64,000 nucleotides of DNA from Lunularia cruciata (taxonomy: Eukaryota > Streptophyta > Marchantiopsida > Lunulariales > Lunulariaceae), in contig OX419757.1 of the NCBI GenBank assembly GCA_948567375.1, positions 17,560,974-17,624,973 of the forward strand, in the 5' to 3' direction. The notes under the pieces are model-generated. The model ran no database searches and was not told where the DNA came from. It worked only from the letters and a program-made list of their open reading frames with translations. Each line of letters starts with the position of its first letter. Position 1 is the stretch's first letter. The translations under genes were made by a program, and so were the position numbers. Below are positions 1-64,000 of this stretch, in pieces.

Positions 1-560
1 GCTATTGTACTTTTGGACTTGGATGATCCAGACATATGGATGAGCACATGTTTCTCAATAGGTAGAGACCTTTTAAAGAGTGATGCCAATGGCCTTTGTG
101 AATTTAGCAATTGCTAAGCATAGGGATACCTTATACTATGCTACTATTTTAGTAGGAGGTTATAGACCCTTGATCCATCAATTCATCTAGGTGACTATGT
201 ATATTTAAAATAGATTGCACCAACAACACTTGATGTTACTACATGCCACACTATCTTGAGAGTGCATGAGGTTTTGCCTTCCATAGTCCTTGTGTTTAAA
301 GGAAGTTATGGTGGTGTTTGGAAGGATCATGTGTACAATTGTGCGCCATGCCACCTTCCAAACATTGATGGCATTATGAACCCAAGCTTGGCACTTATAT
401 GTGAAAAATTGTGGTGTATATTATGTGGCTCTTTTGATGGAGCTACTATTATGTTGGTGTATGATAGCTATTTGAAAGGATGGCATATGGTATGTTTGAC
501 TCCTCTCCTCATAGTGGTTCCTCAAGGATAGTGGTTATGTCCTAAATGTACTTGCCTTAT
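1..560 (+). pseudogene. Ty3/gypsy integrase C-terminus with PHD-finger relic
   Basis: Conceptual translation across several stops gives the C-terminal part of a retroelement integrase: a region near 110-130 reading like the common RDTLRYA-type segment, a GDYVYL-like strand near 190-205, then an open stretch 256-531 with the CAPCHLPNIDG segment. A PHD-finger pattern follows: a CxxC pair (CILCGS), a GWHMVCLTP core and a final CPKC after a stop near 530. The second Cys pair expected before GWH is read as Tyr, so the zinc site is broken. Stops and lost cysteines show a dead copy. The 5' part lies outside the window. The integrase and PHD assignments rest on recognised family patterns; the fusion is inferred from their order and closeness. 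The PHD part could have been a chromatin-reading module for target choice, by analogy with chromodomains of chromoviruses. Confidence 0.6.
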
Positions 561-844
561 AGCTAGTTCACCTTTTATGTGATATAGATTGCAAACATAT
601 GACTAATGATGAGGCTCAATAGCACCTAGCCTCTTGATCTTAGCCCACCACAAGGCATATCACATATTTGGAGTAGATGACTATTTGGAGTTAGAGAGAG
701 GCCTAACCGCCAACTAGAGGGTGATTGTGGTGCTTTAGAGTTCATGTATGACTTATGTGTGAGTTGTGCTTCTAAAGCTTATGATGTTGACAATGATGTA
801 TGTTATGTAACAATGTATATACACAAAATAACTATCACTACATT
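561..844. other. 3' non-coding part of PHD-type element
   Basis: No reading frame is recognisable. The segment at about 728-832 is repeated in diverged form at about 1270-1364, on the far side of the LTR-like block, so the two form direct repeats around it. No polypurine tract is obvious just before the LTR start at 845. Confidence 0.4.
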
Positions 845-1255
845 TGTAATGCCAAAGTGATTTTGCTTGGACGCTTGAGTGGTAGTGTTGGTAATCATGG
901 TTATTTTAATAGTTGCTCATAGATTACTTGATGGTGGCCACATTTCATGTTAGGGCTACTGATTGCATGGTGGGACTCACTATCACTTGCACCGTTTGCA
1001 CCATCAATGGTGTCTCTAGGGCTAGAGACCTAGGTTGAGTAAAGTGATATACTTTCAAAGTGCAGCTCTAGGGAGCTCACTTCTTTGATATTTAGCCTTT
1101 GAGTTCTTAGCTATGGTGGATAGAGGCCGGAAAGCATCATTTGGAGTCTCTTAGCTAGAGTGGGTGTGGCTTGATTGTAATAAGTGCCCAATTATTGGGA
1201 AATTGTTGAATGGAGGATCAAGTTCAAATATGCTTTTAGTATGATTTGAGTGGAA
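845..1255 (+). repeat. LTR fragment of PHD-type gypsy element
   Basis: The block starts TGTAATGCC and aligns by eye, with many substitutions, to the reverse complement of about 62590-62947. Shared landmarks are GCTTGGAC near the start, GCAGCTCTAG followed by GAGCTCA, and TTTGAGTTCTT followed by GGCTATGGTGG-like sequence. At the minus-strand copy this block is followed by a gag-like relic, so it is most likely an LTR. It is cut short near 1255, where a copy of the pre-LTR sequence follows. Confidence 0.5.
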
Positions 1256-1382
1256 GAGTGAATTGATTATTATGGCACTTTAGAGTTTATGTATGACCAT
1301 GTGTGAGTTGTAGTTATATAGTGTATGATGTTGACAAAATGTATGTTTTGTAACAATGTATACGCATGATAGACAACATAGT

Positions 1383-1710
1383 CAACAAGAAGGTACAACA
1401 CTCTTCTACAGAAAGATAAATGAGGCCAAGGCATGGAATGAGAAAAAAAAGGAGCTAGAGAAGCTCCATAAAAAAGAGTTCCAACATTAAGAACAAAACA
1501 AGGCTTTGATCATGAAAGTCAAGGCCAAAATCAAAGACCATATCCTCAAGACCTTCATCCAACAAGAGAAATACAAGAGTGCATGATGGATACAAGATGC
1601 CAAAGTGAAGACCCTATGAACCAAATTAGAGAAGGCCTATACCAAGACAACAATGGCAAAAACCAGATATGAGAATTTTAAAGAAGATAACCAACCTTTG
1701 TATCTTAGAT
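1383..1710 (+). pseudogene. Coiled-coil reading-frame relic, left part
   Basis: One frame runs through about 1410-1710 with only three stops (TAA once, TGA twice) and encodes a Lys/Glu-rich sequence typical of a coiled coil, for example KKKELEKLHKKEFQ. Two of the stops are TGA, which fits decay of CGA. The frame is cut at 1710 by chromovirus element 1 and similar Lys/Glu-rich sequence resumes at 7323. No family is recognised; it is probably an ORF of an older transposable element. Confidence 0.4.
1706..1710 (+). repeat. Target-site duplication, left copy (TTAGA)
   Basis: TTAGA directly precedes the TGTAACA start of the 5' LTR and is repeated exactly at 7318-7322 right after the 3' LTR. A 5-bp duplication is what Ty3/gypsy integrase leaves, and it fixes both element ends. 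Confidence 0.9.
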
Positions 1711-2123
1711 GTAACAATATGGAATTTAGCAGCATAGTTAGTAAGGCTAATGAAGTAGAGAATAAGCCAAATTAGCCCAAATTATTCTAGAAGCATCTAG
1801 GAAGCTTCCCGACTAGCTTAACTTACACCCCAAGCAGGTAACTTCTAGAAGGATGCTTCTAGAAGCTTCCAACTAGCTTAGCTTGCATGCCAAGTAGGCA
1901 ACTTCTAGAAGGAAGCTTCTTGAGCAGCTTCTTGGTTAACTTGGCTTGCACTCTAAGAAAATGGCTCAAGGAAGCTTCTTGAGAAGCTTCTCAAGGGCCT
2001 TGTATACTACCTTTAAATACCAAAGCCAAAGGTCATGCTAGGCATTTGGAGTTTTTGCACATTCAAGTGTCGCAATGTGAGTTTCCATTCTCCTATTTCT
2101 CTCCTCGGTCTTGGTCTTTTACA
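1711..2123 (+). repeat. 5' LTR of element 1
   Basis: Starts TGTAACAATATGG and ends CTTTTACA, giving the TG...CA ends of an LTR. The body consists of diverged tandem units of roughly 60 bp that repeat the phrases CTAGCTTAGCTTGCATGCCAAG and AACTTCTAGAAGG with GAAGCTTC palindromes between them. A TATA-like TTTAAATA lies at about 2013-2020 (TATAAATA in other copies). About 100 bp of presumed R/U5 follow. Confidence 0.92.
1785..1990 (+). promoter_or_regulatory. Cluster of heat-shock-element-like dyads in U3
   Basis: The stretch holds many GAA/TTC modules at 5-bp spacing. The best is TTCTAGAAGCTTC at 1857-1869, a perfect three-module heat-shock element (TTCnnGAAnnTTC). Near-perfect trimers with one changed module lie at 1785-1797, 1912-1924 and 1971-1983. 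The cluster ends about 20 bp upstream of the TATA-like box. Heat-shock factor trimers bind such arrays, and heat-activated plant LTRs (ONSEN) carry similar sites. Activity here is inferred only. Confidence 0.55.
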
Positions 2124-2124
2124 T

Positions 2125-2136
2125 TGGTATCAGAGC
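2125..2136 (+). promoter_or_regulatory. Primer binding site, initiator tRNA-Met type
   Basis: TGGTATCAGAGC begins two bases after the LTR end. It is the usual plant retrotransposon sequence complementary to the 3' end of initiator tRNA-Met, and it is unmutated here, unlike in element 2. Confidence 0.9.
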
Positions 2137-2396
2137 AAGGAATGAGATGGATGGAACTTATGGACCACCAAATCTACTTCCACCAAACCATTGAGATTTT
2201 TGAGTCCAAGTACAACCCAAGCATTGTTTCACACAATTCATTACCTCACGCTTTGGACAAGATTTTCTACATATGATCACCATATCTGAGGAAACCCTTG
2301 GTGCTTTAAGTTGTAACTTATGGAAAATGGTGGACGTGTTGTTTCTATATGTTAATAAATTAGATAGATTAGGGGTAGCATGATAAAGTAACAACG

Positions 2397-3290
2397 ATGG
2401 CAACAATGCCCGAGGTTATCCTTGCTATGCAATAACAAATTGAGCACCTTACTCGATTATTGGATGAACGTGAGCTTCGGCAATAGGAGCATGTAGAGAG
2501 AGTATCAATTTGAGAAGGAGAAGATTGAATCCAATTCCTAAACCCAAGGTATATGAAGGCAAGAATCTCCCAAGTGTAGGAGAGAATTTTGTGTTTGAGT
2601 GTGAACATTACTTTGAAGCTACCAATCTACAAGATGAGCAAAAATAGATTCTCTTGGCTTCTAGCCAATTGGATGGAGTAGCAAAGCTATGGTGGAGATT
2701 CCGAGTGGAGTGAACTAAATGACAAATTTTTGCACCAATCTTGACATGGGTAGATTTCAAGAGTGCAATAATTAGTCGGTTCCAAACTATAAATGCCATA
2801 CAAGCTGCACGGGATAGGTTGGTAAAGTTGAAATAGATTGACTCTATAAGAAGTTACACTATGCAATTCTAGAACACCATCATGCAAATTCCAGATATAC
2901 TAGAAGGTGAAGCTTTGGATTGATTTGTGAGGAGCTTGAAGTCAAGAACCAAATAAGAGGTAAATTTACAAGAGCCACAATACTTTGAGGAAGCCATGCG
3001 GTTGGCCAAATGTTTTGATTCCTTGGTTGCAAGAACTTGGTCTTGACTTCGACCTCCACAAAATGTACCAATACACTAAACACGGATAGAGGAGCCAACA
3101 CCAATGGAGATTGATGCCATTTAATGGAGACCACTTGGCATTGTAGATAAAGAGAAATTGAATATGGGTTATTATCACCAATTGGTATATCACATCATTG
3201 AATGTCCACTTAAGATGGATGACCTTGACAAGTTGCCCAGATGGAGTTTGTGGAGTAGAACAATCAAGGAAACAAGGAAATCCCAATAGG
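2397..3290 (+). pseudogene. Decayed gag of element 1
   Basis: An ATG at 2397 starts a frame matching the better-preserved gag start of element 2 (ATG 40776). Conserved landmarks are a Gln/Glu-rich N-terminus, a region around 2640-2960 resembling the plant retrotransposon gag domain, and a zinc-knuckle remnant near 3160-3215 (YYHQLVYHIIECP) in which expected Cys residues are replaced. Many stops and frameshifts interrupt it. Gag would form the virus-like particle. Confidence 0.65.
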
Positions 3291-3384
3291 ATATTTTGAG
3301 CCGCCTATTGAGAGCTTGATTAGTTCCAATGGGATTGAAGGTTTGACCTATGCGAGTTTGCTTCACTTGCAAGGTACGATATCT

Positions 3385-3663
3385 AATCTGGGTTGTAAGA
3401 TTTTGGTTGATTTTAGAAGTTTATAAAATTGCATCTCTATGAAAGTAGCAAAGGAATTGAGTATTCCTATCAAGCTAGTAATAGGAAGTAGATTGATGAT
3501 GGCAGATGGTAGAAAGGGTTCTGCATTCTGTACCTTGCATCTTGTTACCTTCAAGATTGAGAAGGAGTATTTGGAGTGCATGAGGTTTGTAGTGGCACCT
3601 CTACACTACGATGTCATTCTAGGACTACCTTGGCTTGAACATCATAAGGTTCAATTTAATTAG
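3385..3663 (+). pseudogene. Retropepsin-like protease region of element 1
   Basis: The active-site strand reads ILVDFRS at about 3400-3420, where element 2 has ILVDFGNS, so the Gly after the catalytic Asp region is changed. A stop follows near 3424. The frame 3439-3663 is open and ends in ILGLPWLEHH, the C-terminal LGxxWL motif typical of Ty3/gypsy proteases. It would process Gag-Pol; it is inactive here. Confidence 0.7.
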
Positions 3664-4019
3664 AACCGACAACAAATTAAAGTACAACACCAAGGTAGGA
3701 ATTTCCGATTAGGTTGTTTGGCACCTCTAAGTAAGACACCTACAAAAAGTCAGTCCCAAGATGGGAGGTTTGTCAAGAAGGTAGCCTTAGAGCAAGCCTT
3801 GAAGGGAGATAAGTCCCAAGATGGGAAGTTTACCAAGAAAGCAGCCCTGGAGTAAGCTTTGAAGAAAGATGAGTCCATAGATGGGAAGTTTGTTAGTGGA
3901 GCAGCCATAGAGCAAGCTTTGGAGGAAGATAAAAAAAAATTTGTGGTGTGGATCAAACCAATTATACAAGGACAATCTGGGGAGGGCCAAGAGCCTCATC
4001 AAGCAATGGTTGATCAAAC

Positions 4020-4690
4020 AGTTCAGGAGTTTGTGGTCATGTTTATGGATGATTTGCCAAAGGGATTACCCTCCAATCGTGGTATGCCCTTCAAGATTGA
4101 GTTTTTGCCAATGAGTACTCCAGTGAGTAGACCAATCTATTGGCTCTCACCAAAGGAGTTGGAGGAGTTGCAAACAACACTTATGGAGTTGTTGGAGAAA
4201 GACTTCATATGACATAGCACCTCCCCTTGGAGAGCACTGGTACTATTTTTTTGAAGCAAGATGGAGGACTTTGTTTCTGTATTGATTAGCGTGGGCTCAA
4301 TAAGAAAACAATGAAGAATGCATATCCCTTGTCTTGGATCAATGACTTGCTTGATCAATTGAGTGTAGCAAAATAATTTTCCAAGTTGGATCTTTGTAGC
4401 GGCTATTGGCAAATCCCCATTGATGTGGAGGATGTGCAAAGGACTACCTTCTGTAGAAGGTATGGGCATTTTGAGTGGAAGTTCTACCTTTTGGGCTCCA
4501 ATAGTCTTCATGGATCATATGCATGGGTGTTGGATGGACTATTGGATTGGTACATGGTAGTATTCTTGGATGATATCTTAATCTATAGCAAGATAGAGGG
4601 AAAACATGTGAATCATGTGCAAGAAGTCCTAAGACAACTACGACAATGGAAATTTTACTGTAAGAAATCAAAGTGTACCTTTTGGTAAAA
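4020..4690 (+). pseudogene. Reverse transcriptase region of element 1
   Basis: Recognisable RT blocks, in order: PKGLPSNRGMPFKIE and a SPKELEELQ-like segment (4060-4200), LDLCSGYWQI (4386-4415) and the catalytic FLDDILIYSK (4564-4593), in which the two Asp of the YxDD-type box survive. Frames change between blocks, and stops at about 4210 and 4686 break the chain. Confidence 0.85.
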
Positions 4691-4938
4691 GGAAGTTACC
4701 TTCTTGGGTCACAAGATCTCATTGGAGGGGGATGTAGATGGAAGAGGAGAAAATCAAGGCCATTACTAATTGGCCTACTCCAAAGGATGCTATAGAAGTA
4801 CGGGTATTTAATGGATTGGCCAGTTTTTATCAATGGTTCATGCATTATTATGCTCATGTAGTTGCACCGTTGACTAACCTCTTGGGGAAGAACTTGAGCT
4901 TCTAGTGGACTACCAAACACAAATAAGCATTCCAGAAG

Positions 4939-5350
4939 TTGAAACATATGGTGTCTTTAAGGCCCATTTTTCAACCATATGATCCTCAGCAACCATGTGT
5001 GGTTGATTTTGATGCTTCTAACTTTGCAATTGGAGCCGTGTTGCAACAAGAATTCCCATATGGACTACATCCCATTTTCTTTGTGTCTCGTAGACTAAAT
5101 ACAGTTGAAAGAAATTACTTTGCTCAAGACCAGGAACAACTTGCAATGGTATATGCCACCAAGGTATGGAGGCATTATTTCTTGGGGAAACAAGTGATCA
5201 TGCAAACTGATCACAAACCATTGTTGCAGACCTTACACTTGGAACACATGAAGAGTCAACATCATTGATGGGAAGAGCAACTCCAATTGTTTGACATCAA
5301 ACTTGAGTACAAACTAGGTTGGTTCCATGTCATCCCTGATGCTTTATCAC
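4939..5350 (+). pseudogene. RNase H region of element 1
   Basis: An open segment 4939-5268 carries VDFDASNFAIGAVLQQ (first catalytic Asp), a SRRLNTVERNYF-like block, and QTDHKPLLQTL (a later Asp). It continues in another frame with FDIKLEYKLG and IPDALSRQPD, the end typical of the Ty3 RNase H domain. It would remove the RNA template during reverse transcription. Confidence 0.85.
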
Positions 5351-5576
5351 GACAACCTGATTTGAAGTCTCTTCCTCTCATCACGGTGGCAATTACAATG
5401 GTGGCAATTGACTCCAAGGTCCAAAATGAGTTTTGGTCAGCTTTACAACAAGATCTTTTCTTCCAAAAGGTACATGGTTGTCTTACAACATGTGGCAAGG
5501 AGTACAACACCTTCTCTTTCAAGGAAGGCATTCTATTCCATGAAGACCAAATCTATATTTGAGCCAAATGTGATCT

Positions 5577-6130
5577 TCAACTTGTGCATCTTCAAGAAGC
5601 CCATGATTTACCAATAATTGGTCACATGGGTGTAGACAAGACCTTAGGTACCCTCCAATGCCAAAGTTGGTGGCCCAACATGACACAAGATGTTCAAGAG
5701 TCTGTCAATTGTGTGAAAGCTTCCAACGCAACAAGGCCAGCAACCTGAAGCCAAGTGGACTCCTTCAACCACTCCCCATTCCATCTGCTCCATGGGAACA
5801 TGTGAGCTTGGATCTCATCACATCCTTGCCCAAGACAAAGCAAGGACACATAACAATCATGGTGTTTGTGGATAAGCTTAGTAAGCAAATCCACTTAACA
5901 CCAACTTTTGATATTGTGAATGCTCCAACCTTAGCACAGATCTACTTCGACAATATCTTTAAGCATCATGGGATGCCACATGTACTCATCTTTAACCATG
6001 ATCCTTGATTCACTAGGAAGTTTTGGCAAGCACTCTTCCAGATACTCAACACCAAGCTTGCTTTATCCATGGCCTATCATCCTCAAACTGATGGACAAAC
6101 CAAATGTGCAAATTGTACCTTGGAAGATAT
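5577..6130 (+). pseudogene. Integrase region of element 1
   Basis: Zinc-binding remnant HMGVDKTLGTL followed by SWWPNM (5620-5680), then PWEHVSLDLITSLPK with the first catalytic Asp (5790-5830), VFVDKLSKQIHL, a second-Asp region (NHDP near 6000), and AYHPQTDGQTK leading to the catalytic Glu region near 6070-6125. Several frameshifts separate these blocks. Confidence 0.8.
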
Positions 6131-6684
6131 GTTGTGTGCCTTTGTCAATGTCCACCATACCAATTGGGAGGAATGTCTTCAACTACAAAATTTGCCTACA
6201 ACAATTCCAAACAAGCAATCACCAAAATTTCTCCTTTCTTTCTCAATTTTGGCCAAGATCTGCTTGTTCCAGATTCTATTCTTGCTCCACTCCCATCTCA
6301 AGTCCCTCATACTTCAACCTTCTTGACCACCATCTCCTAATTGCTCCAACAAGCCAAATCTCACCTCCTTATTGCCCAGAATCATCAAAAACAATATATG
6401 GACCACCATCCCCTTGATCTCACCTTCGAAGTTGGTGATAAAGTCATGCTATCCTCTAGTAATCTACCCCTCCCACTGATACCCAAGTAAGTAAACTTGC
6501 CAATAATTGGATAGGACCCTTTGATGTCACACAAATTGTCTCTCTTGTTGCTTATCGACTTGCCTTGCCTTGTCATATGCGCATCCATCCTGTCTTTCAT
6601 GTTTCCAAGTTGAAACCCTTTGTTCCTAACCCCTCTTCTATTTCCTCTTGAGTCCAAACTCCCCCTCCTCCTATCCCTATCAAT

Positions 6685-6870
6685 GATCATGAGGAGTACA
6701 AAGTTGATCGTATCCTTACATGTTGCCACATTCAACGAGGCCGTAAACAACATACGGAGTACAAGGTCCTTTGGAAAAGGTATCTACTTCATGATGCCAT
6801 ATGGGAACCTCTTTCTCACCTCCAAAATGCATAGACGGCCATCCAGGAGTTTGAAGCTTCAATGGCGATA
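6685..6870 (+). pseudogene. Chromodomain at the Pol C-terminus, element 1
   Basis: Read across 6691-6866 the sequence gives EYKVDRIL, then YKVLWKRYLLHDAIWEPLSH and QEFEASM. The E-Y-x-V-D-x-I-L start, the W in VLWK and the A-x-WEP motif are the chromodomain signature of chromoviruses, which reads histone H3 methyl-lysine and guides insertion. One stop (TAG near 6832) interrupts it. Confidence 0.85.
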
Positions 6871-6890
6871 AGGACATCACCAACTAGCAA

Positions 6891-6898
6891 TGGGGGAA
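6891..6898 (+). promoter_or_regulatory. Polypurine tract of element 1
   Basis: TGGGGGAA lies just before the 3' LTR. Element 2 has TGGGATAA at the same place. It would prime plus-strand DNA synthesis. Confidence 0.6.
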
Positions 6899-6900
6899 TA

Positions 6901-7317
6901 TATAACAATATGGAGTTTAACAATGTAGTTAGTAAGGCTAACAAAGTAGAGAATAAGCCAAATTAGCCCAAGAAGCTTCCTAGAAGCTTCTTTGGAAGCT
7001 TCTTGACTAGGTTTACTTACACTCCAAGCAGGTAGCTTCTAGAAAGATGCTTCTAGATGCTTCCAACTAGCTTAGCTTGCATGTCACATAGATAGTTTCT
7101 AGAAGGAAGCTTCTTGAAAAGCTTCCTAGTTAACTTGGCTTGCACTCTAAGAAAGCGGCTCAAGGAAGCTTCTTGAGAAGCTTCTAAAGGGCCTTTTATG
7201 CTACCTATAAATACCAAAGCCAAAGGTCATGCTAAGCATTTGGATTTTTCCCACATTCAAGTGTCCCAATGTGAGTTTTGATTCTCCTATTTCTCTCCTT
7301 GGTCTCGGTCTTTTACA
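6901..7317 (+). repeat. 3' LTR of element 1
   Basis: Aligns with 1711-2123. The terminal TG has become TA (G-to-A) and the end is CTTTTACA. TATAAATA is intact at 7206-7213. A perfect three-module heat-shock element GAAGCTTCTTGAA is at 7106-7118, at a place where the 5' LTR has one changed module; conversely the perfect site of the 5' LTR is lost here. Confidence 0.92.
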
Positions 7318-7322
7318 TTAGA
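7318..7322 (+). repeat. Target-site duplication, right copy (TTAGA)
   Basis: Exact match to 1706-1710. Confidence 0.9.
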
Positions 7323-14202: not shown

Positions 14203-14368
14203 TGTAATAATATTGAGTTAGCAAAAATTAATGAGTCAATAAATAAGTTGAATATAATAAAATCAAAGTAGAACTTGCATACATTTGGGAATTCTTATAA
14301 TAATCTAGAAGTATCTAAGAAGCTTCTTGGTAGAATGTTCTAGAAGTACTCAAGAAACATCTTGGTTA
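14203..14368 (+). repeat. Truncated chromovirus-family LTR
   Basis: Starts TGTAATAATATTGAG, like the 5' end of the element 1 LTR, and runs through TCTAGAAG and GAAGCTTCTTGG before a second LTR start follows. It holds a perfect three-module heat-shock element GAATGTTCTAGAA at 14333-14345. Confidence 0.65.
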
Positions 14369-14892
14369 TATAATATAGAGTTAGTTGAGACTAACAAAGT
14401 AGAAAATAGCCTAAATTAACCAAGAATTATAAGAATATTCTAAAAGTATATAGGAATCTACTTGGTACCTTCCAAGTATTGAGTAATGTGCATGTCAAAT
14501 GGTGACTTCTAAGAGGAAGTTTGTCGAGAAGTTTCTTGACTAGCTTAGCTTGCATGACAAGTAGGTGCCATCTAGAAGGAAGCTTCTTGGGAAGCTTCAC
14601 AACTAACTTAGCTTGCATGCCAAGAAGGAGGCTTCTAGAAAAAAGCTTCTAGAAAGAAACTTCTTGAGAAGCTAAGCTAACCGGTTATCTTGGCTTGCAC
14701 TTTAAGAAGGTGGCTTTAGGAAACTTTTTGAGAAGCTTCTCAAGAGCCTTGTATGTTTCTCTATAAATACCAAAGCCCAAGTTCATGCTAGACATTCATA
14801 GTTTCACTCATTTAAGAGTCTCAATATGACCTTTCACTTTGATCTTTCACTTTGATCTTCCATTCTTCTATTTCTCTCATCGATCTTTTATA
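14369..14892 (+). repeat. Solo LTR of the chromovirus family
   Basis: Reads TATAATATAGAGTTAG at the start (TGTAACAATATGGAG in element 2) and ends CTTTTATA where intact copies have CTTTTACA; both ends show G-to-A/C-to-T decay. It holds three of the roughly 60-bp tandem units, TATAAATA at 14762-14769, and no primer site or gag after it, so it is a solo LTR. No target duplication is visible. Confidence 0.75.
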
Positions 14893-21900: not shown

Positions 21901-22599
21901 ACATTCGTTATCGAAAGAAACAGGAAAAGCGAGTCAGTGACTGCAAGAAAGGAGGATATGTAACGAGCTATTTGCCCAATATAAGGGTATGCACGATGCA
22001 GTTGAGAAAGAAATAGAATCAATTGGAGAGCTCCAAAGACTAACTGAGGCTCTCAAAGAATGAAATCCCTTCAGTACAATTTCTGCTCCAATCAGCATGA
22101 GAGGTGCAAGTATCCACCGGTGCTCGTCCTGCACAAGTTCTGCGGGGGAGAATTCCATTTCTTTTGGATCTCCGATGAGGGAAAGACATGAGTGCGCTAA
22201 GTCCCTCCTTCAACTCGGTCATGAGAAGGACAAGAACAAGAAGAATTTCTCTTTATGTCCTGTAAGAACCTAAAGAATTGAGTAATCCCAGGACAGAAGG
22301 GGTCCACTTCCGGGATTCTGAGACTCCAGGGACTTCCCCAGATCCCGGCAGTCTGCTTCGTCCCATCCTGCATCATTCGTATGATATTTTCAAATACGCT
22401 AGTGATAGTTGTAGCAAATAAAGTACTAATATTCTCAATGCACTAACAATCCATCTTTTAACATATTCAAACGATCAAGAGCAGAAAACCGGTGCACAGA
22501 GCGATGTAGCCTGCATCACATGCTGGTGCTAGACCATAGGAAGGAACTGGAAGGGAAGACATTTATCGGTGGACATATCATGTTAAAATGGAGCACGCT

Positions 22600-22605
22600 T
22601 TTATT
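22600..22605 (-). terminator. Polyadenylation signal of the pyruvate kinase gene
   Basis: AATAAA on the minus strand, about 48 bases after the pyruvate kinase stop codon, the expected place for a near-upstream element. Confidence 0.5.
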
Positions 22606-22652
22606 GGTGATCTCTCCGGAGGCAAAAAACGAGGAGTTAGAAATAGAGGCTA

Positions 22653-25600
22653 CTACTTGATGTCCATAATCTTGATGACTGATGCTGCACCGATACGATG
22701 AAGAGCCACAATAGCATCTCCGTGCTGGCAAAGATTCGTCTTCAAAGCGTAACCGATTGCAGCGTTGAGTATCTCATCCGTAGTATCAGAGTCAGTTGCT
22801 TTGGCTGCACCTTCCGCAAGAAGGGGAATCAATCCTCGACAAACAAGACTGTGACGAGCAGGTGCTTCCTCACTAAGCTCCCAGGTCAGGCTATCTGTTG
22901 TCATTACTGGTACTGCAACTGATAGGATTGGAACAGATGGACGGTACTTCGCCACAAGTTTTGCTGTACTTCCACCTCGTGTGAGCACAATAATCAAAGT
23001 CGCTCGTACTTTGTTAGCAGTTCGAACTGCGGAAGACGCCAGACTTTCCAATGGGGTCATTGGAAGTGGTGCTGATTTCATTACGCTCTTGAAAATAGCA
23101 TCGTAGTCAAGAGATGCCTCCGCTTCACGACAGATGGCAGCCATGATTTTCACAGCATGCTCCGGGTATGCACCTGCTGCTGTTTCTCCACTCAACATAA
23201 CAGCATCTGTTCCGTCCAATACTGCATTAGCTACATCTGTGGCCTCTGCCCTCGTTGGACGGGGTGACTTTATCATAGACTCGAGCATTTGCGTCGCAGT
23301 AACCACAGGTTTGCCTGCTGAATTACATTTAAAAATCATCATCTTCTGCGCCAGGAAAATTTTCTCTGTAGGAATCTCCATCCCAAGATCTCCCCTGGCA
23401 ACCATGATACCGTCACTCTCTCTCAAGATGTCATCGAAGTTGACGAGGCCTTCCTGGCTCTCAACCTGCCCATTGACCGCATGCAAGATGAGTTCGACGT
23501 AGGTGCCAGGAAGTGTAAATTAGAAGGAGCCTCAGAGCGAAATGAACCATCCACAGACAACGCAGTAACTACCAAAATCAAGGTCATGAAAAGTACATAA
23601 TCTTGTTCAAATGTCAAAAGTAAATATTTTAAGTGCAATTATTCATATCCATTCTCCTGACTCGCAATCACACTTGTGCTCCTCGTTGCATATTATAGTA
23701 CTCTTAGACTCTGTGTAGACGTTAGCAATAGAAAGTTCCTTCTAGTCGTCTAGCGATAGAGAAAGAGATAATCTCTAAGAACCTTCAGAAGTGAGATGCA
23801 GAGTAGAATACGTCGGGAAAGTCTGACATGGAACAGTTAGAGAATTGTGATTTTTAAGAATCATCCATCAAGGAAATTATAAGCTCTGTCAGATGACGGG
23901 AGAAACCAGTGAAGTAGCTCCTTTTGGTAGTAATCTTAAGTTTACATTATCAAGACGCAACTACTTTGGAAACGGATAAGGTAGGAAAATCTATTTCTGT
24001 CCAACCGATACGTTTTACGACTAGTGAACTCCTCGAGTTGAAAAGGACCCATCTTTATGCATCTCTTTGGTCGACGGCATACGCAACAGACATTTGACTG
24101 GCATTGTGTACTAATCATTTATAGTTCATGAATTTTAGCTGCGCCCCATGAGGTGAGAGTCTGACTCACAAGATTTACGGGTTCCAAATAACGTAGTCAT
24201 CTGCCACTACCCGCGAATTACAAATGCGGCTGACTGGCTGATACAGAGGACACTGATTGGGTCCAGAGACGCCCAGTATTCCCAAGAATGATAATTCCTT
24301 CTTGTCGGGAGACCGGAACTAATGTCATATTTAAGATGAACTGGAGTCCGCAGATTTATAATATCTTTAAACTGATAGGTAGATCCAACAATTCTACCGA
24401 GGGAAGACTATACGCAGAAAGATGACTATTCATAATTAGTTCAAACCCGTATTCCCCAAAGATTGTGTGTTGGATTTGCTGGACGCGGAAGGCAGAGGAA
24501 TCGGAGAGAATTTCATTTATAGACTCTTTAGAAATAAATGTTAACAAGATTCAGACATTAGTTGGAAAATAGTATGGAATGGGCCTACCACCAAAACTGC
24601 ATTCAGAGTTAGGAGCAACTTCGAGTACCTTTGAAATGATGTGAATAGTTTTGGCGTGCGGCCCCAGAAGCTCCTTGATCGTCACTACGTCAGATCCCTT
24701 GCGCACAAAAGAAGCAGCAATAAAGTCGATCTTGTTTGCAACACCCCATATCAGAATGTCGTCCTCGTCTTTCTTGGTAAAGGTAGGCAGGTCGACAACA
24801 ACACCGGGCAAATTACAATTTTTCCTTTCACCAAGCGTTGCTGAATTTTCACATTTGCATTTCACTTTTCCACCAGCTACGTCGCATTCCAGTACTGTCA
24901 AGGTGATACTTCCATCTGCAATTAGAATCGCGTTACCAGGTTGAACGTGTTCTGCCAGCTTTTTGTAGCTCAGAGCGATCGTATTTTCATCACCCTTGAC
25001 TTCGTAATCAGTAGTGAGCGTGATCTCGTTCCCCTTGATAATTTGAACCGGGTGTCCATCTTTCAACATCCCAGTACGAATCTCTGGACCCTATCCATCG
25101 AATGGCATATTTTAGAATACTTTCGAGGTTACTGTGCAAACTCACAACAGGAGACTAAATAAGGCATGCCAGGAGATGAGGAGAAAAGGACATGCTGTAC
25201 CTCTGCTACACCTACTGATTTCAAACAAAATGAAGAGTCAATTACCAGAAAAACGCCGCAATAAGAAGTATGTGCGTACCCGTAGTACTAAGGGAAAGAC
25301 CCCGAGAAGAAAAGACTGAGGGAAAAATAAATATTGTGCATGCCGAAATCGATGAAATATAATAACTAATCTGTATAAGCAAAATCATTAAGAAGAAATG
25401 CCTTGGTAATTTTCTCAAGCCCTGACAGTGAACATTCAATTGTATGGACTCCGGGCAAAAATAGAAGTCAAGCTGGTCCCAAAACCTCCATCTTTATCTT
25501 TAGTCGAATGCAGAGCCAACATAATCGGTCATCTCTACAAGGTAGTTGAACATCGACAAAACGGACGTAGAAACGAAGCAAATCTCGAGCTTACTCTTAT

Positions 25601-26188
25601 AGCGCTGACAGAGAAGTTCCATAACTACACGGCAGCTTCCGAAAACTGTCGTCTTAAATACCTTCGAAGCTAAGGTCTTAGGACAGGAGAAAAGAGGAAG
25701 AAAAGTAGCACACATAAGTATCTTTCTACGCGATTCGCTTCCCTATTTGGACGGAGGGAGAACCTAATATCAAACTTAAGAAAGTAGACTTTCAGGTGAT
25801 AGTTGGCAACTCCAACACATGGCAGCACGCAACTCGGGAGCCGCGTAGCATTAAAAACATGCAAGCAAGCACCCAACCAGCACGTACGAAGCACAAATAT
25901 TTCCCACGAATATAGATTAGTGACTCAAACCTTGGTATCGAGAAGAACGGCGCACATAATCTGCGTATTGGACATAGCTTGTTTCAGATTTTCCAGCGTT
26001 TCCTGATGATATTCATACGACCCATGCGAGAAATTGAACCTGGCCACATTCATTCCTGCTCGCAGCATCTTCTCCAAAATCTCCACATCGCGCGACTTCG
26101 GTCCCAAAGTACAGATAATCTTAGTCTTCGGCAGCCTCCTCGACTCCGGACTTTCTTTGAGGATCGAATCAATATCAATTGTGGCCAT
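22653..26188 (-). CDS. Cytosolic pyruvate kinase (3 exons, 510 residues)
   Basis: Catalyses phosphoenolpyruvate + ADP to pyruvate + ATP, the last step of glycolysis, in the cytosol. Exons on the minus strand: 26188-25931 (residues 1-86), 25090-24629 (87-240), 23465-22653 (241-510 and TAG). Both introns (840 and 1163 bp) have GT-AG ends and fall between codons. The total of 510 residues equals the usual plant cytosolic isoform. Landmarks: PKTKIICTLGP (20-30), RFNFSHG (50-56, cation/nucleotide site), LDTK|GPEIRTG across intron 1, ISKVES with the catalytic Lys at 240 right at intron 2, MVARGDLGMEIP (261-272, metal site), TQMLESMIKSPRPTRAE, and VLTRGGSTAKLVAKYRP. No transit peptide is seen, which separates it from plastid isoforms. 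ATG at 26188 (MATIDIDSILKE) matches family N-termini; an in-frame ATG at 26215 would add nine residues. All key residues are intact. Confidence 0.96.
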
Positions 26189-28349
26189 CTTGCCACCAAA
26201 AACTAAGGGACACAAGACAGGACTCGGAGTCTGAGACTCCTCTTCTACTCCTTATCGTTCTGTCCCAGCAATCGACCAATCAGTCAAACCCTCCCTCTCT
26301 CCTCGCAAGTCTCCAGAATTGCTTGCGATCAATCGTTCGATCTGATCTGCCCTATTAGGACTGTCGTGAATGACAATTACCACCACTGCTGATCCTGCTT
26401 CTTCTTCCTTGTTTCCTGTCAAGTGTCTCCCTCCCTCCGTCGACTCAGATCTTCCTTCCTTCCCTTCCCTTCCCAGACTCACCTGCCCGACTTCCGCAAA
26501 TCGAAGAGCCTTTGTTCCTTGACTGTTGTCTCATTGCGACTCCTTGTCGTCGACCGTCGCATCTGCAACTGAACCACTCCTTTGTCTCGGGGGATGCCTT
26601 CCAACCCCTAGTGCGCACTCTAAATGGACGCATTGCGCACTGATCGCAATAATTCCTCCACTGCACGGCAGTATACGTTCTCTCGTCGTCTCTTGTCTCT
26701 CTCGCTTGCGCTTTCTTTGAGCCCTTGCTCCTCATCGGAAAGGACAGCTCTTCTCCCGGCCGTCCACCCTTTACGTCGAATTATCCACAGTCGACCAGGT
26801 TCCAGGAACCCTGCCTGCCTTTTCGTTGAAGAACATATGAGTTGCATTTCAGTATTTTACTGTGCATTGGGAATCGGAGTAAAGCCGACGGCTCCCACGT
26901 GGGCCTGTTGCCTCACTTTACATTAACTCTGTCCGATAAAGACTGTCCTCCTGCTTTGGCCTCTAGCGGACCGTCGCGGACTGATTGCTGCTCCTTGTGT
27001 GTGGTCTCGGCGCACGCTCCGTAGCTCCGGTCGCTGAAATCAAACGGGCAATCAATTCCCCGGATACCGCCGGGGGAATGACCTCCCGGCGGCATCCAGG
27101 GCAGACCCGGCAGATAGAGTAGTGTATTTCATTCTGAGAACTTGCAGACATTCCGGTTTCTAGAAGATATCTGTCGCGTAACAAGCTCCGGCTTTCCCCG
27201 GCGATCTCCCCATCCCTGGAACATGACGAAATTTACCCGGGAAATACCCGTAATCTGAAGACTTTTCCCCCATCGTATGCACTGTAGGTTCTCGAGGGAG
27301 GGAGGGCTCGGACATTAGATAGAATCCATGATTGCAGTTTTTCAGAATTCCAGGTAGAAACATGCGGTGACGGTTTCTTAGCTTGTCTTGCGCCAGTGGA
27401 GCTTTGACCTTCCAGAATGGAAACATCAAACTCATGGACTTCTCTAGCCCCGGGGTAAGAAGAGCGCACAGTCAGCTAAACCCAGTAGTGCTGTGCTGTA
27501 GATCCGTGGTGTGTTGTTGATCTACCTCGCGTTTCTTGTTAATGACTCGGCTTAAGTATCAGGAGCTGTTCATGAGCGAGATCAGTCCAATCCCGATTGT
27601 GTGGAGAACATCTCTGTGCTGAATAAACAATTGTCTCATTAGGAGACTTGATAGTCGATGGAGGTTACTCAATGCAGAAAATGAACTGATTGTATTTAAG
27701 TAGGGAATGTGACAGTTTGAATCCAATGTTGAGAGTGGTATCTACAGTGGCATGAGGGAAAGATGTAATATTCTTTAACAGGAGAATACAACTGTGACAG
27801 CTTAAAATTTCTCCACGTTAGCAACTTCTTGACAAGAAAGATGCCAATAAAGAGAACTTGTGTACATTAAGGAGTTTGTGTACAAGATAGGTTGATTACC
27901 ACATCTGGTAAATCCTGACTCAACCCGACTGGATACCAGAGAGATTTAGTGGAAACTAATATCTGTCTCCTTCCGGTATGGATCTTGGCCAACTTCCCTT
28001 ACGTCTTGCGGAGCCAGTTACTGAAGAGATAATTTTGTCCAGCTACGTAGATCTTTTGGTTAAAAAATTATCTGAAAACTGACATACAATGGTTCCTACG
28101 GCCTAGACGTTTCACGGACGTAACCTTTGGATAGTCCTTGGCACTAGTAGGCCCTAAAAACTTCGCGACGGATAAAACAGTTTCTGGATTTACGTCATGA
28201 GACCCAACCAGTATTAGCTGTCAGAATGCAATATGAAATAGCATAACCAAACAGCAGTCCTGATTTTTCAAGGTTTGCATAAAATTAGTCGAAATGACAC
28301 TTCATATTTGTACAGCAGGTCTAATGTCTAATTTTTTCAAGAACTTACC
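26189..28349. other. Promoter and intergenic region of pyruvate kinase
   Basis: 2.2 kb between the stop of the S1-protein gene and the pyruvate kinase start, both transcribed leftwards. About 26390-26480 is strongly pyrimidine-rich on the plus strand (purine-rich in the transcript sense) and may be 5' UTR. A CCAAT motif is on the plus strand near 26275. Open frames on both strands at 26250-27470 look like chance in GC-rich DNA. Confidence 0.5.
26896..26901. promoter_or_regulatory. G-box CACGTG in a 10-bp palindrome
   Basis: CCCACGTGGG at 26894-26903, about 0.7 kb upstream of the pyruvate kinase start. Palindromic G-boxes bind plant bZIP and bHLH factors; function here is not shown. Confidence 0.35.
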
Positions 28350-34300: not shown

Positions 34301-35502
34301 TCGGACATATCCGAATCAGCGACTGTGGATTGAACATCTTCAACTGAAGGAGGTGTGCTAAGATCTGGTGTAGTTGAATCATCTGAGGAAGTAGGGCCAC
34401 TGATCGACGGTCTCCTTAATTGACGGTCACCAGGCCCAGGCTGCTGACTTTGCGAAAAAGAATCTGTTTTTCTCCTCATTAACATCGGAGTGATAACTGC
34501 TTTATCGGGCCTAGCAGGCGGCATGCCAACTTCAGAATCTGGCACTCGCATTGGCTTTCGCATTAAACCCTCTAATTCATATGAATCTGAAACTGCTGAC
34601 TTCTTCACACCACCAGAACCAACCGGGGGAATCACACGAATTGTTCGCATGGGTAAGGATTCCAACTCCTTGAATCCAGGAGGCCGGACTGGCGGGGATA
34701 TGAGATCAGGAACGCCTTCTTCGGGCCCCTGAAAGGAGTTATAACTTGCACTGTCTGCTTTCACCGCGGAGGGTGGTAATCTCGATGGGACCGAACGTCG
34801 AGCAGCTTGCTTCTGAAACTTGAGCTCTTTCTCCTTCTCGATCTTCACGTAAGTAAGTTCGGGATTCAATTTTTTACCAACAACCTGACTCCAGGCACAA
34901 ATTCTGTGAGAAGGACAGACATGGCAAAGCCCACAAAATCTTCTCACATTGCACCTATACTATAAGCCAGGCAGAAACTAGCTCAAAGTCCTAAACACTG
35001 ATGTAATCCCTGAGTTGAGATTTAGCGGCCTCAAACCAAATCTGATTTGGATGACGTTCTCAGGTTTTAGAGAAGTTTGTTCTTGGAGAAATTTAGAGAA
35101 ACTAGTTTGCAGCTTAGGTGGTCTGAAAAATAATATAGTGCAAAAGGATAGACAGTAGCACACTTTTGCTAGAGTAGTTTGACGATCCTCTCCCAGCAAG
35201 CGACCGAACTCCAGCTCCATCATGTCCGTTGCCTCGAGCTTTAAGTCTCCTCTTTTATTAACCAAGCCATCATCTCCGCTTCGCTCCTTTTTCGCTCTGA
35301 TGATAACTCGCCTCCTGTCTCGTCCATGTTGCTCTAACCTACTAAGTCCCAATGTCAACCCCCTGCCGCCATTCGACACATTCCTATCCTCTCGAAGCCT
35401 AGTGAGTTTGCAAGGACAGGAACGCGGGCGGATACTCCTGACTCCAAATGCTGGCGGCCTATAAAGCGCCAGTAAACGTGAATCCACGAGTGAAGAAGCC
35501 AT
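28350..35502 (-). CDS. Chloroplast S1-domain RNA-binding protein, SDP-like (13 exons, 1028 residues)
   Basis: Exons (minus): 35502-35164, 34884-33402, 32548-32376, 31996-31898, 31472-31173, 30630-30517, 30404-30333, 30055-29969, 29731-29663, 29461-29372, 29072-28956, 28684-28616, 28424-28350. All introns are GT-AG and phases fit, giving 1028 codons and TGA. Residues 1-70 are Ser/Arg-rich with few acids, a likely chloroplast transit peptide. GRLLGED...TLAK|VVGKKLNPE (about 101-122) matches the block I recall from Arabidopsis At1g12800 (SDP, S1 domain-containing protein, linked to chloroplast rRNA processing). Residues 125-640 are Pro/Ser/Glu-rich and look disordered. Two S1 domains follow: about 688-820 (EVKIIGTGRGGLL, GFGSLVGFLPAFEL) and 841-907 (GDVVTCEVKKITTFGAFVD, PALIHSSEIS). 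The C-terminus keeps the family's YKLLARFGNEVQE segment. It is longer than the Arabidopsis protein (about 770 residues), mostly in the disordered part. Exon 8 has a weak donor (GTGCAC). Confidence 0.88.
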
Positions 35503-39440: not shown

Positions 39441-39450
39441 CAATGAAGAA

Positions 39451-39873
39451 TGTAAAAGATAATGGAGAGAAATAGGAGAATAAAATGTCAGAATAGAAAG
39501 TCTGGTCACATTGAAACTCTCAATTATGGGAAAATTTGAATGTGTAGCATGAGCTTTGACCTTGATATTTATAGGACACTTAGGTACAAGGTTCTTAAGA
39601 AGCTTTTGAGGAAGGTTTGTTCCTTAAGTAGCATTTCTTGGAATGCAAGCTAAACTAACCATTACTTGCGATGTAAGCTAAGCTAGCCATCAACTTGACA
39701 TACATGTTACTCAATTCTTAAAAGGTTCCTAGAAGCTTCTTACCCCAAAGCTTCCTAGATGCTTCTAGACCATTCTTAGGTTATGCTAGTTCTATCATAT
39801 TTTGGCTATTTTTTGTTGATTCTACTATATCATTAGCTTCCACTCACTCTTTTGCTAACTCTATATTATGACA
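39451..39873 (-). repeat. Solo LTR of the chromovirus family, minus strand
   Basis: On the plus strand it begins TGTAAAAGA and ends CTCTATATTATGACA, the reverse complements of the family LTR end and start. It contains reversed CTAGAAGCTTC and GCTAAGCTAGCC phrases. No primer site or coding region adjoins it, and no matching 5-bp flanks were seen (AAGAA versus TCCTA), so it may have formed by recombination between different copies. Confidence 0.8.
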
Positions 39874-40089: not shown

Positions 40090-40507
40090 TGTAACAATAT
40101 GGAGTTTAAAAAAATTAGTTAAGACTAACAAAGTAGCAAATAAGCCAAATTAGCCAAGAATTATAAGAATACTCTAAAAGCATCTATGGAGCTTCTTTGT
40201 ACCTCTCAAGTATTGAGTAACATATATGCCAAGTGGCAATTTCTAGGAAGAACCTTCTTGGGAAGTTTCCCGACTAGCTTAGCTTGCATGCCAAGTAGGC
40301 GGCTTCTACAAGGAAGCTTCTCAAGTAACTTAGTTTTCACCCTAAGAAGGCAGTTTTTAGGAAGCTTCTCAAGAGCCTTGTATGTTCCCTATAAATACCA
40401 AAGTCAAAGCTCATGCTAGGCATTTGGAGTTTCCCTTATTCAAGAGTCTCAATGTGATCTTTCACTCCGATCTTCCATTCTCCTACTTTTCTCCTCGATC
40501 TTTTACA
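40090..40507 (+). repeat. 5' LTR of element 2
   Basis: TGTAACAATATGGAG to CTTTTACA. TATAAATA at 40390-40397. It has fewer internal tandem units than its own 3' LTR. Confidence 0.9.
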
Positions 40508-40508
40508 T

Positions 40509-40520
40509 TAATATCAAAGC
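40509..40520 (+). promoter_or_regulatory. Decayed primer binding site of element 2
   Basis: Positionally equal to the tRNA-Met site of element 1, with three G-to-A substitutions. Confidence 0.75.
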
Positions 40521-45296: not shown

Positions 45297-45776
45297 TGTA
45301 ACAATATGGAGTTTACAACAAGTTAGTCAAGACCAATGAAGTAGAAAATATACTAAATTAGCCAAGAACTATATGAATAGTCTAGAAGCATCTAGGAAGC
45401 TTCTTGGTACCTCCCAAGTATCATGTATGCCAAGTGGCAACTTCTACGAGGAAGCTTCTTGGGAAGCTTCCTGACTAGCTTAGCTTGCATGCCAAGTAGA
45501 TGGTTTTTGGAAGGAAACTTTTTGGAGATTTTCTTGACTAATTTAGCTTGCATGGCAAGTAGACAACTTCTAGAAGGAACCTTTCAAGAAGCTTCATTGT
45601 TAACTTAGCTTGCACTCTAAGAAGGCAACTTTTAGGAAGCTTCTCAAGAACCTTGTATGTTCCCTACCAAATCCCAAGCTCATGCTAGGCAATCAGAGTT
45701 TCCCTCATTCAAGAGTCTCAATGTGATCTTTCACTCGGGCCTTCCATTCTCTTATTTCTCTCTTGGGTCTTTTACA
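45297..45776 (+). repeat. 3' LTR of element 2, one unit longer
   Basis: TGTAACAATATGGAG to CTTTTACA, 480 bp against 418 bp for the 5' LTR. The extra length is an additional internal tandem unit (about 45470-45560, repeating TTAGCTTGCATG.CAAGTAG). Confidence 0.88.
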
Positions 45777-62947: not shown

Positions 62948-63257
62948 AATGGCATGACATATGTATGCCAAGTAGGTAGCTTCTAGAAGGAAGCTTAAAA
63001 AGCTTCCCAACTAGCTTAGTTTGCACACCAAGTAGGTGATTCTTAGGAGAAAGCTTCTTTGGAAGCTTCTTGATTGGCTTAGCTTGGACTCCAAGAAGGT
63101 GTTTCTAGTAGGAGCCTTCCCAAGAGTCTTGTGTATTTCCTATAAATATTAAAGCCTGAGCTCATGCTAGGCACTAAGAGTTTTCTTCATTCAAGAGTCC
63201 CAATGGGATATTCACTTTGGTCTTTTATCCTCTTATCTCTCTTCTCAATGTTTTACA
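62948..63257 (+). repeat. Chromovirus LTR, right piece (copy 3)
   Basis: Continues the family LTR with two tandem units carrying GAAGCTTC dyads, TATAAATA at 63141-63148, and the end GTTTTACA at 63257. Confidence 0.8.
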
Positions 63258-64000
63258 TCAATGTCAAAGCAAGAATGACATGGATGGATTTATGGACCAC
63301 TAAATCCATTTACTCAAAATAGTTAGGATTTTTGTGTTCATAAACTACCCAAATATCATGTCATGCAATTTATCATTTCATATTTTGGGTACAAATTTTT
63401 GGATATAATCACCTTGATCAATAAACCATTGATACTTCCTATTGTAAAAGAGCAAAGAGCAGTAGACATGTTGCATCTACATGTGAACTGAAATAATTGC
63501 AAATAGTTTGATAAAGTAGTAGCTATAGCGACAATGTACAAAGTTATCATTACTATGCAATAACAAATTCAGCACCTTACTCTATTGTTGAAAGAGAGAG
63601 ATCATCAACAATAAGAGCATGAAGACAGATCATAATTTCAAGAAAGAGAAAAGCAAATATGATTTCTAAAGCCCAAGGTATTTGAAGGTTATAATCTCGT
63701 GGTTGTAGTGGAGATTTTATGTTTGATTTTAAATGTTATTTTGAAGCTACAAATCTTCAAGATGAATAGAGCCAAATTCTCTTGGTTTCTAGCCAATTGG
63801 ATAAAGTGGCAAAACTATGGTGGCAATTTTCAGTGGAACAAGCTTAGTGACAACTTTTTGTACTAATTTTGACATGGGAATAATTTAAGAGTGCTAGAAT
63901 AAGAAGATTCCAAGCTTTAAATGTTCCATGAGATAGATTTATAGAATTGAGGTAGATTGGTTTGTGAAGAGCTACATCATTCAATTCTAGAATACTATAA
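63258..64000 (+). mobile_element. 5' part of third chromovirus copy (gag relic)
   Basis: A decayed primer site (CAATGTCAAAGC, 63259-63270) follows the LTR, then leader and gag sequence parallel to 2137-2900 of element 1 and 40521-41240 of element 2 (for example GCAATAACAAATTCAGCACC near 63557). It runs out of the window at 64000. No long frame survives. Confidence 0.8.

What the first reader, a model, noticed from the sequence alone, without database searches (positions are those of the whole stretch)
1785..1990. Chromovirus LTRs built from units packed with heat-shock elements
The LTR body is made of tandem units whose main conserved content is GAAnnTTC and TTCnnGAA dyads. Perfect three-module heat-shock elements occur at 1857-1869 (5' LTR), 7106-7118 (3' LTR) and 14333-14345 (truncated LTR), with many one-mismatch trimers, all upstream of TATAAATA. 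This is the layout of a heat-inducible promoter and recalls ONSEN, a Copia element; here it would be in a Ty3/gypsy chromovirus, with the dyads amplified by unit duplication. Different copies keep different perfect sites, which suggests an ancestor rich in them.
Basis: partly seen in the sequence, partly recalled or inferred. Interest (0 to 1): 0.75.

Follow-up and report, generated by a model that had tools for sequence, protein, structure and literature searches.

The report
Retrotransposon promoter packed with heat-shock sites
A mobile element in a plant genome carries in its promoter about ten paired half-sites for the cell's heat-shock regulator, in most sampled relatives including one textbook-strong site that recurs thousands of times in the genome, so it probably once used the host's heat response to switch itself on.

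Summary
The window holds an old, broken Ty3/gypsy chromovirus (LTRs 1710-2123 and 6901-7317, TSD TTAGA, Pfam Chromo at 6652-6831). In 47 family LTRs there are on average 10.0 GAAnnTTC/TTCnnGAA dyads, against 0.37 in dinucleotide shuffles and 0.15 when every 60-bp unit is permuted alike. The window copy hides the main feature: 31 of 47 copies have a run of four modules ('4P', the strongest published plant class) at 1852-1869; here one module is broken. The exact 18-mer GAAGCTTCTAGAAGCTTC occurs 5,213 times in the 566-Mb genome (reversed control 0) and lies inside a published HSF pull-down oligo. Three of six older relatives have the same two dyads with a 4-bp instead of a 2-bp spacer, so a 2-bp change may have made the 4P site. 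Best explanation: an HSF-driven, heat-inducible LTR promoter that works like ONSEN's, in a chromovirus. Heat response was not tested; host-promoter controls were inconclusive; a fair conservation test was mostly not significant; dated copies are old (K2P 0.08-0.15). New variant of a known kind.

The parts
1705..1709 (+). target-site duplication TTAGA, 5' copy
   Evidence: read directly
1710..2123 (+). 5' LTR (TG...CA)
   Evidence: 88% identical to 6901-7317
1785..1990 (+). U3 array of eight module runs: dyads at 1785, 1801, 1843, 1903, 1912, 1971, 1983 and a trimer at 1857
1852..1869 (+). place of the four-module (4P) site; first module is GAT here, leaving a 3P site at 1857-1869
   Evidence: run of four in 31 of 47 copies; exact 4P in 36 of 51 core copies
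2012..2019 (+). TATA-box position (TTTAAATA in this copy)
   Evidence: TATAAATA in 43 of 47 copies
2125..2136 (+). primer-binding site TGGTATCAGAGC (complement of the initiator Met tRNA end, recalled)
   Evidence: read directly
4377..4685 (+). reverse transcriptase piece
   Evidence: RVT_1, E 1.1e-12
4927..5265 (+). RNase H piece
   Evidence: RT_RNaseH_2, E 4.1e-26
5563..5745 (+). integrase zinc-binding piece
   Evidence: Integrase_H2C2, E 4.9e-12
6463..6648 (+). integrase C-terminal SH3-like piece
   Evidence: SH3_Tf2-1, E 2.8e-16
6652..6831 (+). chromodomain piece
   Evidence: PF00385, E 1.7e-8, 34.7 bits, cut-off 25.1
6892..6898 (+). polypurine tract GGGGGAA
   Evidence: read directly; same tract before the 3' LTRs of relatives
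6901..7317 (+). 3' LTR; 3P site at 7106-7118, broken 4P place at 7046-7063, TATAAATA at 7206
7318..7322 (+). target-site duplication TTAGA, 3' copy
   Evidence: read directly
14379..14890 (+). older-clade LTR; the 14333 trimer lies just upstream, outside this match
39449..39661 (-). LTR fragment of the family
40090..40510 (+). older-clade LTR, 4 dyads
45297..45776 (+). older-clade LTR, 7 dyads, 3P site at 45583-45595
62959..63258 (+). LTR fragment of the family, TATAAATA at 63141

Best explanation
The U3 of this chromovirus family is a promoter driven by heat shock factors (HSF). About ten HSF dyads lie roughly 20-230 bp upstream of a TATA box, crowned in the main clade by one perfect four-module (4P) site. 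In heat, activated HSF trimers would bind the 4P site cooperatively and start full-length RNA, coupling the element's replication to the host's heat response, as HSFA1/HSFA2 do for ONSEN. Shown here: the sites, their excess over chance, their shared position, their number in the genome, and the chromovirus identity. Inferred: HSF binding, heat induction, and that a 2-bp change of spacer brought two existing dyads into phase and made the 4P site of the expanded clade.
For: 10.02 dyads per LTR v 0.37 (47 copies) and 9.96 v 0.15 with unit duplication kept. Module distances peak at 5 bp and inner bases are nearly fixed (GC in 264 of 315 GAAnnTTC, TA in 143 of 151 TTCnnGAA); the resulting 18-mer is contained in a published HSF pull-down oligo (PMC8492855 passage). 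Run of four modules at one place in 31 of 47 copies, TATAAATA downstream in 43 of 47. 5,213 exact 18-mers in the genome, control 0; 7,083 GAA-first 4P sites, control 117. In 317 kb held, family LTRs (27 kb) have 39 of 39 4P and 110 of 112 3P sites (stretches chosen for the family). Precedent: ONSEN HRE bound by HSFA2 and needing HSFA1/A2 (PMC3907296 passages); 4P the strongest class and derived from a dyad in ONSEN (PMC5059998 passages).
Against: No expression or binding data. With columns classed independently of the copies compared, module columns are not clearly better conserved: 0.826 v 0.770, p 0.06 (old v old); 0.829 v 0.812, p 0.37 (six oldest); 0.876 v 0.783, p 0.0047 (core v old), which falls to p 0.19 when matched for how uniform the column is in the core. 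Host HSP upstream stretches did not supply a positive control. GAAGCTTC dyads are more often 12 bp apart than the in-phase 10 bp (69 v 31 in 48 core copies). The moss chromodomain element RLG1 is repressed by heat shock (PMC7466625 passages). All dated copies are old.
Confidence: 0.75

Rival explanations
1. The GAAGCTTC palindromes are an enhancer for some other dimeric transcription factor, active in normal growth, and only resemble heat-shock elements.
For: Most dyads are not in HSF phase with each other: 12-bp spacing of GAAGCTTC is commoner than 10-bp (69 v 31). The centre of the commonest dyad is nearly fixed as GC although HSF is written with free n. Host HSP stretches gave no matching sites (weak control).
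Against: The second dyad type, TTC-TA-GAA, is also amplified (3.21 per LTR v 0.18), which a GAAGCTTC factor would not need; in the main clade two dyads are in exact HSF phase in 47 of 51 copies by length; the 18-mer is part of an HSF probe.
Confidence: 0.13
2. No function: a palindromic unit was duplicated in the LTR by replication slippage and the copies spread with the element.
For: The U3 is a tandem array of about 60-bp units; conservation of module columns is not clearly above the rest.
Against: Unit duplication alone does not give the modules: permuting all units alike leaves 0.15 dyads of 9.96. Dyads are more numerous in copies less diverged from their nearest relative (r -0.57, 57 copies). 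A TATA box follows in 43 of 47 copies.
Confidence: 0.09
3. The inverted repeats act as RNA structure near the 3' end of the element's RNA (packaging, 3' processing) and not as DNA sites.
For: The U3 strand folds better than shuffles (z -4.56, 0 of 200).
Against: Any array of palindromes folds well, so this is expected either way; fixed inner bases match an HSF probe. No covariation test was run.
Confidence: 0.03

Closest known systems
ONSEN / COPIA78 (Arabidopsis, Ty1/copia)
   Same: HSF-type modules in the LTR upstream of the start of transcription; 4P class; 4P thought to have arisen from a pre-existing dyad (PMC3907296 and PMC5059998, passages)
   Different: ONSEN is copia and its dyad was duplicated; here a chromovirus, about ten dyads per LTR, and the 4P site seems to come from a 2-bp spacer change. 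Heat response and HSFA2 binding are shown for ONSEN only
TERESTRA, COPIA37, ROMANIAT5 (Brassicaceae copia)
   Same: clusters of nGAAn modules of 3P, 4P, gap and step type in LTRs (PMC5059998, passages)
   Different: copia elements; heat response measured there
TCN3 of Cryptococcus neoformans (Ty3/gypsy)
   Same: Ty3/gypsy LTR with putative HSEs; transposition recovered at 37 C and not at 30 C (PMC12810828, passages)
   Different: a fungus, two putative sites in a 606-bp LTR; the passages seen do not speak of a chromodomain
RLG2 and RLG1 of the moss Physcomitrium (gypsy)
   Same: gypsy elements of a non-seed plant; RLG2 RNA is induced by heat and ABA (PMC7466625, passages)
   Different: RLG1, which has a chromodomain, is repressed by heat shock; no HSE analysis in the passages seen
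Heat-induced gypsy RNAs of conifers (Cryptomeria, Pinus)
   Same: Ty3/gypsy transcripts rise in heat (review PMC9780303, table passages)
   Different: no HSE or HSF wording in that review (0 occurrences)
HSE-bearing Helitrons of Caenorhabditis
   Same: a mobile element holds a substantial number of the genome's HSEs (PMC6927752, passages)
   Different: DNA transposon in an animal; HSF-1 binding shown there

Membership tests
Ty3/gypsy chromovirus | pol order RT - RNase H - integrase | tested here: met
   pieces at 4377, 4927, 5563 in that order
Ty3/gypsy chromovirus | chromodomain at the integrase C-terminus | tested here: met
   PF00385 34.7 bits, cut-off 25.1, at 6652-6831, after the SH3-like piece
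Ty3/gypsy chromovirus | phylogenetic place of RT in a named clade (Tekay, CRM, Reina, Galadriel, Tcn1; names recalled) | not tested
   no tree made; frames broken
Heat-responsive (HRE-bearing) LTR retrotransposon | three or more adjacent nGAAn modules in the LTR upstream of TATA | tested here: met
   3P or longer in 41 of 47 copies, TATAAATA in 43 of 47; each window LTR has one 3P
Heat-responsive (HRE-bearing) LTR retrotransposon | binding by HSF | not testable with these tools
   only that the 18-mer is part of a published HSF probe
Heat-responsive (HRE-bearing) LTR retrotransposon | transcript rises in heat | not testable with these tools
   no expression data
ONSEN / COPIA78 | Ty1/copia pol order (integrase before RT) | tested here: not met
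   integrase follows RT and RNase H; so not an ONSEN member
[quoted passage not shown]
   mean 2.6 CG and 1.6 CHG in the first 300 bp of 47 LTRs, low but not zero; CpG o/e 0.08 in U3, 0.20 internal, 0.10 in the 5' flank, 0.76 and 0.72 genic, which looks like general methylation decay

The most novel reading that the evidence does not exclude
A chromovirus gained a full-strength HSF switch by a 2-bp spacer change that put two existing dyads into phase, expanded on it, and thereby seeded most of the GAA-first four-module HSF sites of its host genome (5,213 exact copies, about one per 109 kb), enough to act as a genome-wide HSF sink or to lend heat response to neighbouring genes.
Probability: 0.2. 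Interest if true: 0.85.

Novelty: new variant of a known kind. Interest (0 to 1): 0.6.

Why it matters
The heat-driven plant LTR elements whose HSF control is worked out are copia elements such as ONSEN. A chromovirus with a 4P site would mean that capture of the heat-shock response arose again in a different lineage. Thousands of dispersed copies, decayed to different degrees, also give a natural series for asking how number and phase of modules set heat response, and whether a genome can carry thousands of strong HSF sites without disturbing its own heat response.

Tried and rejected
Conservation as proof of selection: a first comparison seemed to show module columns far better conserved, but it chose columns by their being intact in one of the copies compared. 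With columns classed independently, five of six comparisons are not significant and the one that is (core v old, p 0.0047) falls to p 0.19 when matched for column uniformity. I do not use it as support.

Host HSP promoters as positive control: 20 stretches of 900 bp upstream of HSP20-domain exons (of 28 matches) had one perfect 3P site in all and best-site scores no better than Markov shuffles (p<=0.05 in 1, 2 and 2 of 20 for three, four and five modules). But in 14 of 20 the frame is open for 16 codons or fewer upstream of the domain, as if an intron came first, so many of these stretches are probably not promoters. Two HSP70 upstream stretches of 600 bp (of 35 HSP70 matches) had no perfect 3P site; by eye one has an imperfect four-module stretch shortly before a TATATA. 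The control is inconclusive.

Decay creating modules: dyad number falls with divergence from the nearest copy (r -0.57, 57 copies), so mutation on the whole destroys them.

Not obtained: genome counts of the 12-bp-spaced double dyad and of the TTC-first 4P register, the HSF gene search, and elements found by their leader region; the tool stayed busy. No unbiased sample of genome stretches could be fetched. Chromovirus clade and host species were not settled.

Full report
WHAT IS THERE. The finding lies in the U3 of a Ty3/gypsy chromovirus. The element runs from a TG at 1710 to 7317 and is flanked by TTAGA at 1705-1709 and 7318-7322 (direct reading). Its LTRs are 88% identical, K2P 0.124. A primer-binding site TGGTATCAGAGC follows the 5' LTR and GGGGGAA precedes the 3' LTR. 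The frames are broken; of eight pieces searched apart, five gave Pfam hits, in the order RVT_1, RNase H, Integrase_H2C2, SH3_Tf2-1, Chromo, and three gave none (2474-2644, 3427-3660, 5607-6005). The window holds further LTR copies or pieces at 14379, 39449 (reverse), 40090, 45297 and 62959.

THE SITES. One search listed 41 hits (40 of 6,281 first-look candidates scored): the window itself, 39 others that I fetched with about 6 kb on one side, and one weaker inverted hit beside one of these that I did not fetch separately. Near-full LTRs in these stretches, plus the window's two, make 47; 5 of the 39 stretches gave none that was near-full and clear of the stretch end. They were chosen as nearest to the window LTR, so they are mostly one clade and not independent. 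Per LTR there are 10.02 dyads against 0.37 in dinucleotide shuffles, and all 47 have p<=0.01 (300 shuffles each); 41 have a perfect run of three or more and 32 a perfect run of four. If every 60-bp unit is permuted alike, so that unit duplication is kept, 0.15 dyads remain against 9.96 in the same stretch. GAA-to-TTC and TTC-to-GAA distances peak at 5 bp (6.70 and 3.21 per copy), with a lesser TTC-to-GAA peak at 7 (2.06), which is out of HSF phase. Inner bases are nearly fixed: GC in 264 of 315 GAAnnTTC, TA in 143 of 151 TTCnnGAA.

THE FOUR-MODULE SITE. The window copy conceals the main feature. At 1852-1869, 31 of 47 copies have a run of four modules; here the first module is GAT. The commonest form, GAAGCTTCTAGAAGCTTC, occurs 5,213 times in the genome, and 0 times read backwards. 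The generic GAA-first pattern GAAnnTTCnnGAAnnTTC occurs 7,083 times against 117; both read the same on both strands, so I quote one strand. The TTC-first register was not counted. Of the 50 18-mer sites listed (the first ones of C1), 6 pairs lie 4.9-5.4 kb apart, as the two LTRs of one element would, against 0.2 expected for uniform placement. In the 317 kb held (window plus L009-L047), family LTRs make up 27 kb and hold 39 of 39 4P and 110 of 112 3P sites, overlapping runs counted (the stretches were chosen for the family, and the mask includes the query stretch 14301-14890 with the 14333 trimer). TATAAATA follows in 43 of 47 copies.

HOW THE FOUR-MODULE SITE MAY HAVE ARISEN. Of 57 LTRs, 6 form an older, more diverged clade (tree with midpoint root). 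In the other 51 the 18-bp in-phase length is kept in 47, exact 4P in 36, the exact 18-mer in 32; of the 6 older copies none has it, four are about 2-3 bp longer there by alignment and two have lost half the place. Three of the four read GAAGCTTC-TTGG-GAAGCTTC where the main clade reads GAAGCTTC-TA-GAAGCTTC; the fourth (45297) has its modules broken. A change of spacer from 4 to 2 bp would bring the two dyads into HSF phase. The direction rests on the greater divergence of the older clade and on 12-bp spacing being the rule for the other close GAAGCTTC pairs of the same LTRs; it is not proven.

WHY HEAT SHOCK FACTOR. Published work ranks HREs by module number, with 4P the strongest, and derives ONSEN's 4P from a duplicated dyad (PMC5059998, passages). 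HSFA2 binds the ONSEN LTR, and ONSEN activation needs HSFA1 and largely HSFA2 (PMC3907296, passages). The 18-mer is contained letter for letter in a biotin HSE oligo for HSF pull-down (PMC8492855, one passage). A text search for the 13-mer TTCTAGAAGCTTC or its complement listed 23 papers, many on heat shock by title (listing only); a worm HSF-1 binding paper uses a natural probe that holds this 13-mer (PMC9148306, passages).

RESULTS AGAINST. The fair conservation test is mostly not significant (numbers under Tried and rejected). Host HSP upstream stretches gave no support, for reasons that make the control weak. Close GAAGCTTC dyads are more often 12 than 10 bp apart (69 v 31 in 48 core copies). 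LTR pairs are old: K2P 0.080-0.150 for seven pairs, the window's included (an eighth row, L028, was not counted because both members follow a polypurine tract and so belong to different elements). Nothing here says that any copy is active today. CpG and CHG are depleted in the element (U3 CpG o/e 0.08 in both LTRs; genic 0.76 and 0.72), a sign of long methylation.

HOST. The genome is 565.8 Mb in 74 contigs. The helicase fragment at 56698-57699 is mostly 55-60% identical to its named angiosperm relatives and 56% to a Taxus fragment; its best hit, 74%, has no name. A non-seed land plant is my guess; the species is not known to me. That the host has HSF genes was not tested (HSF search unanswered).

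NOVELTY. Heat-responsive LTRs are known in copia elements; putative HSEs are reported in a fungal Ty3/gypsy LTR (PMC12810828, passages); heat-induced gypsy RNAs are reported in moss (PMC7466625, passages) and conifers (PMC9780303, passages). In the listings I saw no report of a chromovirus LTR with a 4P site or with this density. Those listings are capped and most subscription papers are not held, so absence in print is not established. I file it as a new variant of a known kind: it works like ONSEN by layout, and is not an ONSEN member.

Noticed in passing
window 22653-25069 (- strand): Exons of a pyruvate kinase gene (PF00224, PF02887).
   Followed up: no
window 56698-58639 (- strand): SNF2-family helicase exons, related to proteins named SWITCH 2 / ERCC6-like 2.
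   Followed up: partly
window 33379-35502 (- strand): Two neighbouring long open frames (522 and 174 aa) without a Pfam match.
   Followed up: no
window 39068-39450: Tandem array of about 100-bp units, directly next to an LTR fragment of the family.
   Followed up: no
window 3752-3932: Three 60-bp tandem units inside the element's coding region, keeping one reading frame between the protease-like and RT pieces.
   Followed up: no
G000, HSP20 exons: In 14 of 20 HSP20-domain exons looked at, the frame is open for 16 codons or fewer upstream of the domain, as if an intron split the gene there; several of the 28 matches cluster on C7 and C8.
   Followed up: partly
window 1-7320 v 22000-36000: CpG and CHG are strongly depleted in the element and its 5' flank (CpG o/e 0.08-0.20) but not in the genic stretch (0.76), as expected from methylation of mobile elements.
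   Followed up: partly
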